Shown: piece by piece, positions 30,196 through 37,526 of the stretch | Position numbering within the stretch: position 1 is the stretch's first letter | How the letters are laid out: each line of letters starts with the position of its first letter | From: Oscillospiraceae bacterium | Lineage (GTDB): Bacteria; Bacillota; Clostridia; Oscillospirales; Ruminococcaceae | Direction: 5' to 3' | Length of the DNA stretch: 64,000 bases | NCBI GenBank assembly: GCA_009783205.1 | Contig: WRHO01000006.1 | Span: forward strand, 1 to 64,000 | The notes under the pieces: generated by a model | What the model was told of the DNA's origin: nothing | Database searches by the model: none | Seen by the model: only the letters and a program-made list of their open reading frames with translations | Program-made: the position numbers and the translations under genes

Positions 30196-30245
30196 ATTCC
30201 CACATAATTGCGTATAATCAATATTATACGCAATTATGTGGGAAT
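30196..30245. repeat. Perfect 23-bp inverted repeat; contains left dif-like att site (30203-30235 region)
   Basis: attcccacataattgcgtataat-caat-attatacgcaattatgtgggaat; core ATTGCGTATAA-TCAATA-TTATACGCAAT has 11-6-11 dif architecture. Confidence 0.85.
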
Positions 30246-30252
30246 GTTAAAA

Positions 30253-30486
30253 CTAATCAATATCAAGTGTACCGAATTCAGATAAAACAGCCCTTTCAAA
30301 AGAAGAATAAGAAACTTCAAATTCATTACAAGGTCTCATGTTATGTTTTTTTTGAAAGACACCTTTTTTAAAACATCCTATAGAATAATTTCTAATTATA
30401 AAAAATCCACAATTTAAACACATTTCGTCAATATCATCATAAATTTCAATCATGATATCCTTAGTTAAACTTTCTCTTTTAAACAT
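30253..30486 (-). CDS. Small Cys-containing hypothetical protein of element
   Basis: MFKRESLTKDIMIEIYDDIDEMCLNCGFFIIRNYSIGCFKKGVFQKKHNMRPCNEFE. Confidence 0.45.
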   Translation of the reverse strand: MFKRESLTKDIMIEIYDDIDEMCLNCGFFIIRNYSIGCFKKGVFQKKHNMRPCNEFEVSYSSFERAVLSEFGTLDID

Positions 30487-30608
30487 TTTTTACTCCTTTA
30501 CTCTACCTCGAATTTTAATTGCCGGTCGTCAACGGACTCCTTGGTAAGTAAACTTTTTCGATTTTGTTCATAAAAAGCCGTTCGAATGGTTTAATATGAA
30601 CAATTGGG

Positions 30609-31079
30609 TTACCTCTTGGTAAGTAAACTTTTCAACTCCGACAGCTCTCTCATAATAACATCATGTTTGTTTATAGGCTTAACTTTACGCTTGTAATAGA
30701 ACTTTACACGCTTTTTGCTTGTATAAAAGTCGCAGTCGTGAATCCTTTTAAATCCCGGTGTGCTTGAACAAATACGACATCTTTCGGTTGACATTCGACC
30801 GATACTCCACCCGGTACGGTATATTTTAGCGACCCACGGACAGCCGAAGCCGTTACATGATTGACATAAGCAGTAGTTGCAGCCCGATGTGCCTTGCACT
30901 GATGTAACGCGATTTGTTTTTTCGTTCTCTCTGTCAGTGAATTTGCGGATACAGATTAAGTCGTTTTCGGTGAAGACTTCGACCTCGCATAGTTCAAGTT
31001 TGAATACGTCTCGGATATGCTTTGGTATAACGACTCGACCGCGACAGTCTATTTTTCGGCGGATTTTGTTATTGTACAT
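30609..31079 (-). CDS. SpoVT/AbrB-like DNA-binding protein with Cys-rich C-terminal region
   Basis: N-term NNKIRRKIDCRGRVVIPKHIRDVFKLELCEVEVFTENDLICIRKF; then CNYCLCQSCNGFGC...CRICSSTPGFKRIHDC. Confidence 0.7.
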   Translation of the reverse strand: MYNNKIRRKIDCRGRVVIPKHIRDVFKLELCEVEVFTENDLICIRKFTDRENEKTNRVTSVQGTSGCNYCLCQSCNGFGCPWVAKIYRTGWSIGRMSTERCRICSSTPGFKRIHDCDFYTSKKRVKFYYKRKVKPINKHDVIMRELSELKSLLTKR

Positions 31080-32104
31080 GAGTCAACTCTTTCACGATTA
31101 AATTCATTAATGATGTATTTATGTTTTACCTTTAAAAATGAATCTCGACTTTCAATAACTTTTAGAAGCTCCTCAATGCCGAGACATTGAATGTATACGT
31201 CAAGGTTGTTTCCCTGCTGACGAATTAACCAGTATTCAAGGCGTGAAAGGTTGTAAACTATGTCTTTAGAGCTGTAAACGGATATTTTTTCCGAAGTATC
31301 AAGAAACTTCGTCCAAAATGCTCGTGTTTTCCAACGACACTCGTTAGAATTGTTTTTGTCCGGGACCGTAAAACGAAGATAATTATTAAGAACACCGCGA
31401 AATTTTTCGCCAACAGGCTTGTTTACAAGGATAAAATTCTTTGCGTGGTCGCCCTTTAATTGCATTTCACAGCGCACCCAATGAGTATCGTCTTCATAAC
31501 CGCGCTCTTTTGCTTTGTCATAAATTCTTATGAGAGTTTCGGAGCTTCGAGAGCCAAAAGTAACGGAAACCGCCTCACTTTGTCCCTTTCCCTCTTTGCT
31601 GTAAGTAATTTTAGTTGATTGAGCTTTTGCGATGTACAATTCTTGTCGGGTGTAATCGGCAATTTTAAAAATATTCAAAAGCTCTTGATAATCGTCTAAA
31701 GCAACGTCTAAACGCGCTACATTGTATTCTCCATCGTTTTCAAAGAATATACTGAAAAGCTTATCCCAGTCGCCGTGTCCGAAGGTTTCAAATTCTCGAC
31801 AACCCTGCCCGGACATTTCAAGGCATACGCCCATATTTTCATCATGTCCGTCAAAATAGACGTTGATTTTGCCGCAAAACAAGCGTTGTTTATAAAAATA
31901 TCGACCGTAACCTGATTCAAATTTTAAATTTTCCAAGCCGAAAAGCTCAATCAAGGTTTGCGGCGAGTCAATTTGTGATGTTACGGTGAGCCAGTCATAA
32001 AGAATTATGTTTTCTTTGCGTTTTTTTACAGGATTTTCGGGTTCGATAAGACCGTCTTTCTGTATAGATTTTATTATACTTTTTTCCGCTGTTTTTTGTT
32101 TCAA
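31049..32104 (-). CDS. Replication initiation protein (Rep_trans-type replication initiation factor)
   Basis: YDWLTVTSQID...FYKQRLFCGKINVYFDG...MGVCLEMSGQGCREFE...NVARLDVALDD...WVRCEMQLKGDHA. Confidence 0.8.
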   Translation of the reverse strand: MKQKTAEKSIIKSIQKDGLIEPENPVKKRKENIILYDWLTVTSQIDSPQTLIELFGLENLKFESGYGRYFYKQRLFCGKINVYFDGHDENMGVCLEMSGQGCREFETFGHGDWDKLFSIFFENDGEYNVARLDVALDDYQELLNIFKIADYTRQELYIAKAQSTKITYSKEGKGQSEAVSVTFGSRSSETLIRIYDKAKERGYEDDTHWVRCEMQLKGDHAKNFILVNKPVGEKFRGVLNNYLRFTVPDKNNSNECRWKTRAFWTKFLDTSEKISVYSSKDIVYNLSRLEYWLIRQQGNNLDVYIQCLGIEELLKVIESRDSFLKVKHKYIINEFNRERVDSCTITKSAEK

Positions 32105-32220
32105 GTTTAATCACCACCTAAACTGCTCTGTTACTATGTTTTTTAATGTTTTCTGTGTATTTACTACCCCCCTATTAGCGTGGGGGGGTTATACGACTAC
32201 ACATCGTCGTTTTTTGCTCG

Positions 32221-32388
32221 TTATTTGCGTTTTTTTATACGCTCTTGTATGATTTCCGGTATTGTTTTATAAGGCTCGGAACACGGCGGTAAATCCCAAC
32301 GATTATTGAACGGTACAAAGTAGTTGAGCCAAAAATCACCGAGGACGTATGACAGTATTATTAAAAGTGAAAGTATTATAATTTTCAT
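32221..32388 (-). CDS. Small membrane protein of element (55 aa; below ORF-track threshold)
   Basis: MKIIILSLLIILSYVLGDFWLNYFVPFNNRWDLPPCSEPYKTIPEIIQERIKKRK*. Confidence 0.5.
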   Translation of the reverse strand: MKIIILSLLIILSYVLGDFWLNYFVPFNNRWDLPPCSEPYKTIPEIIQERIKKRK

Positions 32389-32391
32389 TGT

Positions 32392-32646
32392 TCACGACCC
32401 CATTGTTGGTATGAACGATTTTCCTCTGATTAACAAAGATATTGTTATCTGTAATACATCTAAAAATAATACCATTTTTATAATATTAAGATATAACCCT
32501 AAAGGCAAGAAAAAATTAACAATGAATAAAGAATCTTCAAGTACGTTAAAAATATCATTAGGGAAATCATATTCTATAACAGGTAATAAATCAATAAAAA
32601 AATAAAAAGGCGCAAAAAACGCTGTTGTTAAAGCATCAAAAAGCAT
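32392..32646 (-). CDS. Small hydrophobic protein of element (84 aa)
   Basis: Highly hydrophobic MLFDALTTAFFAPFYFFIDLLPVIEYDF...FFLPLGLYLNIIKMVLFLDVLQITISLLI. Confidence 0.55.
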   Translation of the reverse strand: MLFDALTTAFFAPFYFFIDLLPVIEYDFPNDIFNVLEDSLFIVNFFLPLGLYLNIIKMVLFLDVLQITISLLIRGKSFIPTMGS

Positions 32647-36380: not shown

Positions 36381-36393
36381 AAGGACGTAAAAA

Positions 36394-36870
36394 ATGGCAT
36401 ATACACAAAAGAACGTAATCGGAGAGATTGCAGGACTGATAATTTTAAGAATATCATGTTTGGCGGCTTGCCTTTGCTTTGGGCTACCAATGTTCTATAC
36501 ATCAATAATACCGAATTACACATTAAGCGGATTCGGTTCAATTTTAGGAGTACAAGAAAGCGTAATACACGGAACCCCGATTTCGTTAATAGCTTTTGTT
36601 TTCCCGATAATTATATTGATTATAACTTTTTTAGAATTTCTAAACGAGAATATGTACACAGCAACTTTCATTTTCGGAATAATAGGGTTTATAATAACTG
36701 TAATTTACTTTATAGCAGAAACTACATATTTAAACCAAAAAGCAAATTTTTTTGATTTTAATTTGTATGATTTGAAAACATGGTTATCATGGGGAAGTCT
36801 TATACTTTTAGGAATATACCTGTTTATTACAGTCCTATCTTTATTGTGCAGAAGAAATTCATCTGGTTAA
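36394..36870 (+). CDS. Polytopic membrane protein
   Basis: Four hydrophobic segments. Confidence 0.55.
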   Translation: MAYTQKNVIGEIAGLIILRISCLAACLCFGLPMFYTSIIPNYTLSGFGSILGVQESVIHGTPISLIAFVFPIIILIITFLEFLNENMYTATFIFGIIGFIITVIYFIAETTYLNQKANFFDFNLYDLKTWLSWGSLILLGIYLFITVLSLLCRRNSSG

Positions 36871-36904
36871 CCCCCAAAAAAACTAAAATAAAGGAGAATC
36901 AATA

Positions 36905-37090
36905 ATGCCTTCAAACAAAAACGCCGATTTGAAATCATCATACTTTGACTTGCTTATGATAAGATATAAAAATAAAGGTCATACCGTTATAGGGTTAGAT
37001 GAATCAATACTTCGGCTAAAGTCAACTATGGACGGTGAAGATGTCGCATATGTTGACAAGCAATTCAACGAATGGTTAAAAAGCCAATAA
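36905..37090 (+). CDS. Small hypothetical protein
   Basis: aaaggag RBS, 61 aa soluble ORF. Confidence 0.45.
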   Translation: MPSNKNADLKSSYFDLLMIRYKNKGHTVIGLDESILRLKSTMDGEDVAYVDKQFNEWLKSQ

Positions 37091-37136
37091 CTCTCTAAAC
37101 CTCATTAAAAACCGCATTGAGCAATTAAACAAAAAC

Positions 37137-37185
37137 GAACACACCCACGGGCGGGGCTACGCTTCCCGCTTCCGTGTGTGTGTTC
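37137..37185. other. Long GC-rich hairpin in noncoding region of element
   Basis: gaacacacccacgg-gcggg-gctacgctt-cccgc-tt-ccgtgtgtgtgttc. Confidence 0.7.
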
Positions 37186-37421
37186 TCGCTATTATGTTTA
37201 ATTTACGTCAACGGCGTTTTTGCCGACCGTTTAAGCGAGGATATCCCCTGCTCTGCTCTTTTGTACAATTTGACGAATGAAATTCGATTTTAAGAATGGC
37301 TCAACCATGCGATTTTTTAAGTGCTATTTTTCAGCTTAAATCTACATCACAAATTGATGAGCTGACTATTCTAATAATTTAGAGTTTTCCCTTTGTGCAA
37401 ATTTACTACTACTCCTACGGG

Positions 37422-37449
37422 AATAATAATAATCAATATTATACGCAAT
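37422..37449. other. Right dif-like att site
   Basis: aataataataa-TCAATA-TTATACGCAAT; right arm and centre identical to the left site. Confidence 0.65.
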
Positions 37450-37526
37450 TATGTGGGAATTGCTATAAATGATAACCTTATAATCGGGGGGCTGTTGTAT
37501 AAATTATTAGATTTTTCATTAAAATA

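What the first reader, a model, noticed from the sequence alone, without database searches (positions are those of the whole stretch)
30214..37460. Compact inovirus-like prophage in a Clostridia-type genome
Seen: a ~7.2-kb block bounded by a 32-bp direct repeat. It carries a Rep_trans-type replication protein, a run of very small genes on one strand (pVIII-like signal peptide + TM + basic tail; acidic TM protein; larger protein with C-terminal TM; 84-aa hydrophobic protein), a divergent XRE repressor, and cargo on the other strand. There is no integrase, terminase, portal or relaxase. Established: inovirus genomes are small (roughly 5-15 kb) and use RCR-type Rep proteins, tiny membrane coat proteins and often host Xer/dif integration. 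Inference: this is a filamentous-phage-like prophage of a monoderm host.
Basis: partly seen in the sequence, partly recalled or inferred. Interest (0 to 1): 0.85.

Follow-up and report, generated by a model that had tools for sequence, protein, structure and literature searches.

The report
Broken filamentous-phage prophage at chromosomal dif
This 7.2-kb block is a real filamentous-phage (inovirus) prophage in a gut Clostridia genome, inserted at what looks like the host's chromosome-separation (dif) site, but an internal deletion has removed most of its secretion motor and half of its attachment protein, so it is probably defective unless another phage helps it.

Summary
Observation confirmed; interpretation right in kind but incomplete. 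The 32-bp repeats (30214-30245, 37429-37460) are arms of a 28-bp dif-like site. The same attL/attR anatomy flanks five Zot-bearing inovirus prophages in the host genus, where the site is single-copy and usually next to a Xer gene. An 8,528-bp circular IMG/VR inovirus genome (L025) is largely colinear: Rep 79% identical, coat 67%, AbrB 62%. The comparison also shows why no pI/Zot gene was seen. The 57-aa ORF at 33624-33797 is the first 57 residues of L025's Zot-like ATPase, cut off before the P-loop. The 289-aa protein is the C-terminal part of a ~700-aa pIII-like protein. About 2.2 kb is missing and the two remnants meet out of frame. No other Zot or Rep_trans gene was found in the 96.6%-complete host assembly, and no other protein with this truncation among 5.8 billion. 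Best reading: a defective (possibly helper-dependent) inovirus prophage that keeps its replication protein, origin, repressor, coat and att sites. Side finding: the origin hairpin upstream of rep matches the ICEBs1 oriT at 23 of 24 bases and is conserved across relatives. New member of a known kind.

The parts
30207..30234 (.). attL: complete dif-like 28-mer ATTGCGTATAA-TCAATA-TTATACGCAAT
   Evidence: same motif single-copy per genome in 21 genomes of the genus incl. own
30196..30245 (.). Perfect 23-bp inverted repeat (4-nt spacer) containing attL; joining the two outer flanks gives a 64-bp palindrome
   Evidence: (I1, I3), sequence
30214..30245 (.). Left copy of the 32-bp direct repeat
37422..37460 (.). 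attR: half-site AATAATAATAA-TCAATA-TTATACGCAAT plus shared flank; contains right 32-bp repeat 37429-37460
30253..30486 (-). 77-aa ORF, no family
30609..31079 (-). AbrB/SpoVT-type regulator with Cys-rich middle; conserved inovirus gene downstream of rep
   Evidence: TIGR01439 1.4e-5; 62% to L025, 49-56% to L026/L028/L029
31049..32104 (-). Rep, rolling-circle initiator (Rol_Rep_N + Rep_trans)
   Evidence: 79% to L025
32166..32189 (-). Putative double-strand origin hairpin ACCCCCCCACGCTAATAGGGGGGT with CT/AA nic site; 23/24 identical to ICEBs1 oriT
32221..32388 (-). 55-aa membrane ORF
32392..32646 (-). pVI-like 84-aa hydrophobic protein
   Evidence: 30-37% to L025, L026, L027, L028 proteins next to pIII
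32668..33537 (-). C-terminal remnant of the pIII-like adsorption protein (no genuine start)
   Evidence: matches the C-terminal part of L025's 711-aa protein, E 2e-14; shared DLTGILGWL
33537..33627 (-). Deletion junction: Zot codon 57 joined out of frame to the pIII linker
33624..33797 (-). N-terminal 57 residues of the Zot/pI-like morphogenesis ATPase (TM only, no P-loop)
   Evidence: 60% identity, E 1.6e-19 to residues 1-57 of L023 Zot; alignment A2
33872..34126 (-). Major coat (pVIII-like): signal peptide, TM, basic tail
   Evidence: 67% to L023/L025 coat; only PDB hit inovirus p8 1ifl, E 0.52, weak
34136..34432 (-). Acidic single-TM protein
   Evidence: 27-47% to proteins before the coat gene in L025, L028, L029
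34442..34675 (-). 77-aa protein at the position of a pV-like ssDNA-binding protein (role inferred from position)
   Evidence: 33-34% to L029 71-aa protein; low-confidence all-beta model
34672..34986 (-). 104-aa TM protein
   Evidence: 67% to L025
35145..35321 (-). 58-aa Cys-rich ORF, no family
35488..35739 (+). XRE repressor, nearest curated phage family RstR (CTXphi-type)
   Evidence: NF041951 1.8e-20, 73 bits vs cut-off 80; 47% to L025
35751..36380 (+). Lipoprotein-like 209-aa accessory protein
   Evidence: C-terminal part 28% to a protein at the same place in L026
36394..36870 (+). 158-aa multi-TM accessory protein
   Evidence: 52% to L025 protein at the same place
36905..37090 (+). 61-aa ORF, no family

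Best explanation
An inovirus prophage of an Oscillospiraceae-type Clostridia host. It inserted by host Xer recombination at the chromosomal dif-like site (inferred from att anatomy), leaving a complete dif at attL and a half-site at attR. It keeps the rolling-circle Rep, its nic hairpin, AbrB-type and XRE/RstR-like regulators, coat, pVI-like and accessory genes. A later internal deletion of about 2.2 kb fused codon 57 of the pI/Zot-like ATPase gene out of frame to the middle of the pIII-like gene. Shown: homology, gene order, the deletion as judged against a relative, absence of another Zot or Rep_trans gene in the held assembly. Inferred: it can still excise and replicate, but cannot extrude or attach virions without a helper's pI and pIII.
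For: Largely colinear circular relative L025 with a Zot-like ATPase and a 711-aa pIII-like protein; its rep ORF reads across the contig ends. The 57-aa ORF equals Zot residues 1-57, E 1.6e-19, and stops just before the conserved IDFPKQL...GEQGSGKT block. The 289-aa ORF equals the pIII C-terminus, no start. att anatomy matches prophages L049, L050, L056, L057, L058. dif single-copy, Xer-linked at 36 of 46 exact sites. A bajarodino virus 76 protein annotated Zot is 43.5% identical to L023 Zot and the bajarodino virus 24 Rep is 42.5% identical to the window Rep; both viruses are filed in Inoviridae. No other Zot or Rep_trans in own genome.
Against: No close relative carries the same element, so deletion age and exact end points are unknown. 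L025's gene order (Zot before pIII) is itself rearranged relative to L026, L028 and L029, so it is not a perfect stand-in for the ancestor. The genus Xer gene is not found in this assembly (best E 6e-4), so the acting recombinase is not identified here. The Zot family of L025 scores below the Pfam cut-off (16.5 vs 20.3 bits) and its AlphaFold model is poor.
Confidence: 0.87

Rival explanations
1. A helper-dependent inovirus satellite or miniphage: the deletion is maintained because origin, Rep and coat suffice when a co-infecting inovirus supplies pI and pIII.
For: Rep, origin, repressor, coat and both att sites are intact; inovirus prophages are frequent in the genus and sometimes tandem (L057).
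Against: No helper Zot or second Rep_trans in the own assembly. No other protein with the same truncation in 5.8 billion. Decay elsewhere in the genus looks like ordinary pseudogenes: Zot with stops in G015 and G029, Rep with a stop in G053.
Confidence: 0.1
2. Assembly artefact: the metagenome assembly skipped about 2.2 kb of an intact prophage.
For: The window is from a 49-contig assembly with no read data available.
Against: The joined sequence is continuous within a 69,946-bp contig; the pIII frame stays open up to the junction; no contig with the missing Zot part was found in the same assembly.
Confidence: 0.05
3. A non-viral mobilizable or plasmid-like element with a MOBT-type relaxase.
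For: Origin hairpin 23/24 identical to ICEBs1 oriT; plasmids and ICEs carry distant Rep_trans relatives.
Against: Rep is far closer to inovirus Reps (79%, 50%) than to plasmid ones (39% at best, and that record, pRGI00226, itself encodes a Zot-like ATPase). No conjugation genes; MobT score 84 vs cut-off 600. Coat matches no plasmid.
Confidence: 0.03

Closest known systems
L025 = IMG/VR UViG_3300006045_000146 (8,528 bp, circular by rep ORF continuity)
   Same: Gene order coat-Zot-pIII-pVI-Rep-AbrB and the divergent XRE + TM gene; Rep 79%, coat 67%, AbrB 62%; same 24-nt origin; attP half-site after AbrB
   Different: Has complete Zot and pIII; carries a partial second AbrB copy between them; lacks the 209-aa lipoprotein; different 87-aa protein at the ssb position
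Clostridia inoviruses secreted by Enterocloster (PMC10061712) and IMG inoviruses (Roux 2019, PMC6813254)
   Same: Inovirus prophages of monoderm Clostridia flanked by direct repeats; 30% of Roux species have an N-terminal-TM pI, as in the intact relatives here
   Different: Those have a complete pI; here only 57 residues
Xer/dif-integrating inoviruses such as CTXphi (PMC3089051)
   Same: No phage integrase, insertion at a dif-like site, RstR-like repressor gene
   Different: Here dif is nearly fully palindromic and linked to a Xer gene in relatives; dimer-resolution role not tested
ICEBs1 oriT and NicK (MOBT relaxase; PMC9371924, PMC10233336)
   Same: Hairpin 23/24 identical with CT'AA nic site; Rep_trans catalytic domain
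   Different: No conjugation genes; not a MOBT equivalog by NCBIfam cut-off

Membership tests
Inoviridae (filamentous phages) | pI/Zot morphogenesis ATPase (the only universal marker, PMC6813254) | tested here: not met
   Only residues 1-57 remain, no P-loop; no other Zot in genome. Closest relatives carry the complete gene. So the element is filed as a defective derivative of an inovirus, not as a complete member.
Inoviridae (filamentous phages) | Short structural proteins (30-90 aa) with one TM, including a pVIII-like coat | tested here: met
   33872-34126 is 67% identical to the coat-position protein of L023/L025; PDB match to p8 weak, E 0.52
Inoviridae (filamentous phages) | Rolling-circle Rep homologous to inovirus Reps, small genome | tested here: met
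   element 7.2 kb
Inoviridae (filamentous phages) | pIII-like adsorption protein with signal peptide and C-terminal anchor | tested here: not met
   Only the C-terminal part remains, no start
Inoviridae (filamentous phages) | Filamentous ssDNA particles | not testable with these tools
   needs culture
Xer/dif-integrating mobile element | Insertion at dif with complete dif on one side and a half-site on the other, no own integrase | tested here: met
Xer/dif-integrating mobile element | Site is the single-copy chromosomal dif | tested here: met
   One palindromic site per genome in 21 genomes; Xer-linked in relatives. Terminus position and dimer resolution were not tested.
Xer/dif-integrating mobile element | Host Xer recombinase present | tested here: inconclusive
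   Genus Xer found in 57 of 60 genomes but only at E 6e-4 in own assembly; other tyrosine recombinases present
MOBT relaxase element (ICE/IME) | MobT-family relaxase above curated cut-off plus conjugation genes | tested here: not met
   84 bits vs cut-off 600; none of the element's genes matched a conjugation family

The most novel reading that the evidence does not exclude
The element persists as a satellite. With its own Rep, an origin almost identical to the ICEBs1 oriT, and a coat, but no pI or pIII, it spreads only via helpers: packaged by co-resident inoviruses, or nicked and mobilised by ICEs of the Tn916/ICEBs1 superfamily. The A7 run at the junction might even give a -1 frameshift fusion of the pI TM segment with the pIII anchor.
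Probability: 0.1. Interest if true: 0.65.

Novelty: new member of a known kind. Interest (0 to 1): 0.42.

Why it matters
Few inoviruses of monoderm hosts are characterised (PMC10061712 counted two Gram-positive hosts before adding five species). The related loci show a genus in which several different inoviruses insert at one Xer-linked, nearly palindromic dif, and relatives that replicate from a hairpin shared with ICEBs1-type conjugative elements. That gives testable predictions about integration and about cross-talk between filamentous phages and ICEs. The element also warns that pI-based inovirus detectors miss deleted prophages, and that a missing pI can mean decay rather than a new phage type.

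Tried and rejected
Programmed -1 frameshift (57-aa + 289-aa, A7 slippery run): rejected as the primary reading once L025 showed the two ORFs are pieces of different genes joined by deletion. Zot elsewhere in the genome: the best PF05707 hit (L001, E 4e-4) is an FtsY-like SRP GTPase. Palindrome as a dispersed repeat: only the two att copies exist in the genome. GC skew across the window to place the terminus: no clear turning point at the element. AlphaFold of L023 Zot (pLDDT 44) and of the 77-aa protein (pLDDT 50): too poor for fold searches, so none were run. Viral-contig scans with pIII-C, coat and the 77-aa protein: no relatives. Distant blastn of the element against phages: no match.

Full report
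What is there. The exact 32-bp repeat at 30214-30245 and 37429-37460 is real (chance expectation about 4e-11). Between the repeats, the minus strand carries Rep, an AbrB-type gene and a run of small membrane proteins; the plus strand carries an XRE gene and three further ORFs. Rep matches Rol_Rep_N and Rep_trans. Among curated phage families the XRE protein is nearest to RstR (73 bits, cut-off 80). No element ORF matched an integrase family.

The relatives. A scan of IMG/VR with the Rep found L023/L025, an 8,528-bp contig whose rep ORF reads continuously across the contig ends, so it is circular. Its genes run in the same order as the window's: 104-aa TM protein, ssb-position protein, acidic TM protein, coat, Zot, pIII, pVI, Rep, AbrB, then a divergent TM gene and XRE gene. 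Identities are Rep 79%, coat 67%, 104-aa 67%, AbrB 62%, TM gene 52%. L026, L028 and L029 are further inovirus genomes of this kind, in which Zot sits after pVI. The nearest records filed in Inoviridae are bajarodino viruses from rodent faeces (Rep 42.5%, Zot 43.5%).

What is missing. L023's 268-aa protein carries a P-loop (AGEQGKGKT) and an N-terminal TM. It scores below the Pfam Zot cut-off (16.5 vs 20.3 bits), but it matches proteins annotated as Zot or inovirus ATPase. The N-terminal TM agrees with the 'atypical' pI seen in 30% of inovirus species (PMC6813254). The window's 57-aa ORF aligns to residues 1-57 of this protein (60%, E 1.6e-19), and the alignment stops right before the block leading to the P-loop. 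[quoted passage not shown] its frame has no ordinary start codon. In L023 coordinates the missing stretch runs from about 1310 to about 3450 (my estimate), roughly 2.2 kb. The pieces meet in different frames. No other Zot was found in the 96.6%-complete assembly (the best PF05707 hit is FtsY-like), no other Rep_trans protein, and no other protein with this truncation was found among 5.8 billion.

The insertion site. attL contains ATTGCGTATAA-TCAATA-TTATACGCAAT, two 11-bp arms around a 6-bp core. attR keeps the core and one arm. The outer flanks together would form a 64-bp palindrome (read). In the genus the same motif occurs once per genome in 21 genomes, own included. A collection scan found 46 exact sites, mainly in Oscillospiraceae and uncultured Clostridia, 36 of them within about 130 bp of a Xer-type gene; most show no inovirus gene in the fetched stretch and so look empty, while six or seven do show one. 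Five Zot-bearing inovirus prophages of the genus show the same full-site/half-site anatomy, with repeats of 17-56 bp. Circular relatives L025, L026 and L029 have an attP-like site (ATTTCGTATAA-N6-TTA) just after AbrB. The genus Xer gene is present in 57 of 60 genomes sampled, but in the own assembly only an E 6e-4 fragment match was found; the gene may lie in the missing few per cent or be replaced. Dimer resolution itself was not tested; 'dif' here rests on motif, copy number and Xer linkage.

The origin. Upstream of rep, on the Rep strand, lies ACCCCCCCACGCTAATAGGGGGGT. L025 has the identical 24-mer, and the nine relatives checked have 20-23 matches to the ICEBs1 oriT quoted in PMC10233336. 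The window has 23 of 24; the next best place in the window has 16. The CT'AA nic site in the loop of a GC-rich hairpin is the one shared by MOBT relaxases and Rep_trans initiators (PMC9371924). Nicking here is inferred, not shown.

How it most likely works. Shown by sequence: an inovirus prophage at a dif-like site with Rep, origin, repressor and coat intact, and pI and pIII broken. Inferred: Xer-mediated integration and possible excision, rolling-circle replication, and no virion export or adsorption of its own. Decay is common in the genus: Zot reading frames with stops in G015 and G029, Rep with a stop in G053. I therefore favour a decayed prophage over a satellite, but cannot exclude helper use.

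Known or new. Clostridia inoviruses are known (PMC10061712, PMC6813254), and so is dif integration by inoviruses (PMC3089051). The element is a new, defective member. I did not find a paper in the searched library that describes inoviruses at a Xer-linked palindromic dif in this group, or the inovirus/ICEBs1 origin match; that is absence from a limited search, not proof of novelty.

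Noticed in passing
L151 (HG796283.1, plasmid pRGI00226): A 5.6-kb 'uncultured bacterium plasmid' in PLSDB encodes a Zot-like P-loop ATPase (FCGPQGSGKT), a coat-like small TM protein, a Rep_trans Rep and the same origin hairpin: probably an inovirus filed as a plasmid.
   Followed up: partly
L057 (G029:C1:260000-279900): Two inovirus prophages in tandem next to the Xer gene at dif, with similar Reps but different Zot types; the first one's Zot was reported with one TAG stop.
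   Followed up: partly
L113, L136 (Paenibacillus apiarius, P. profundus): The window-type site ATTGCGTATAATCATTATTATACGCAAT also lies about 130 bp from a distant Xer-like gene (about 30% identity) in Paenibacillus.
   Followed up: no
window 30134-30152: A degenerate copy (89%) of the att arm, TATTAGACGCAATTACGTG, 88 bp left of attL; perhaps a remnant of an earlier att site.
   Followed up: no
window 28280-29953, minus strand: 557-aa protein joining an ECF sigma-factor-like N-terminus, a Thr-rich repeat region and leucine-rich repeats (as read from the translation), directly beside the insertion site.
   Followed up: no
L025 4740-5037: Partial second copy of the AbrB gene between Zot and pIII, suggesting how Zot moved in front of pIII in this lineage.
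   Followed up: no
G000, whole assembly: The Xer gene present in 57 of 60 sampled genomes is not found in the window's own assembly; G042, with a similar TATAAT-type site, keeps the gene but unlinked from it.
   Followed up: partly
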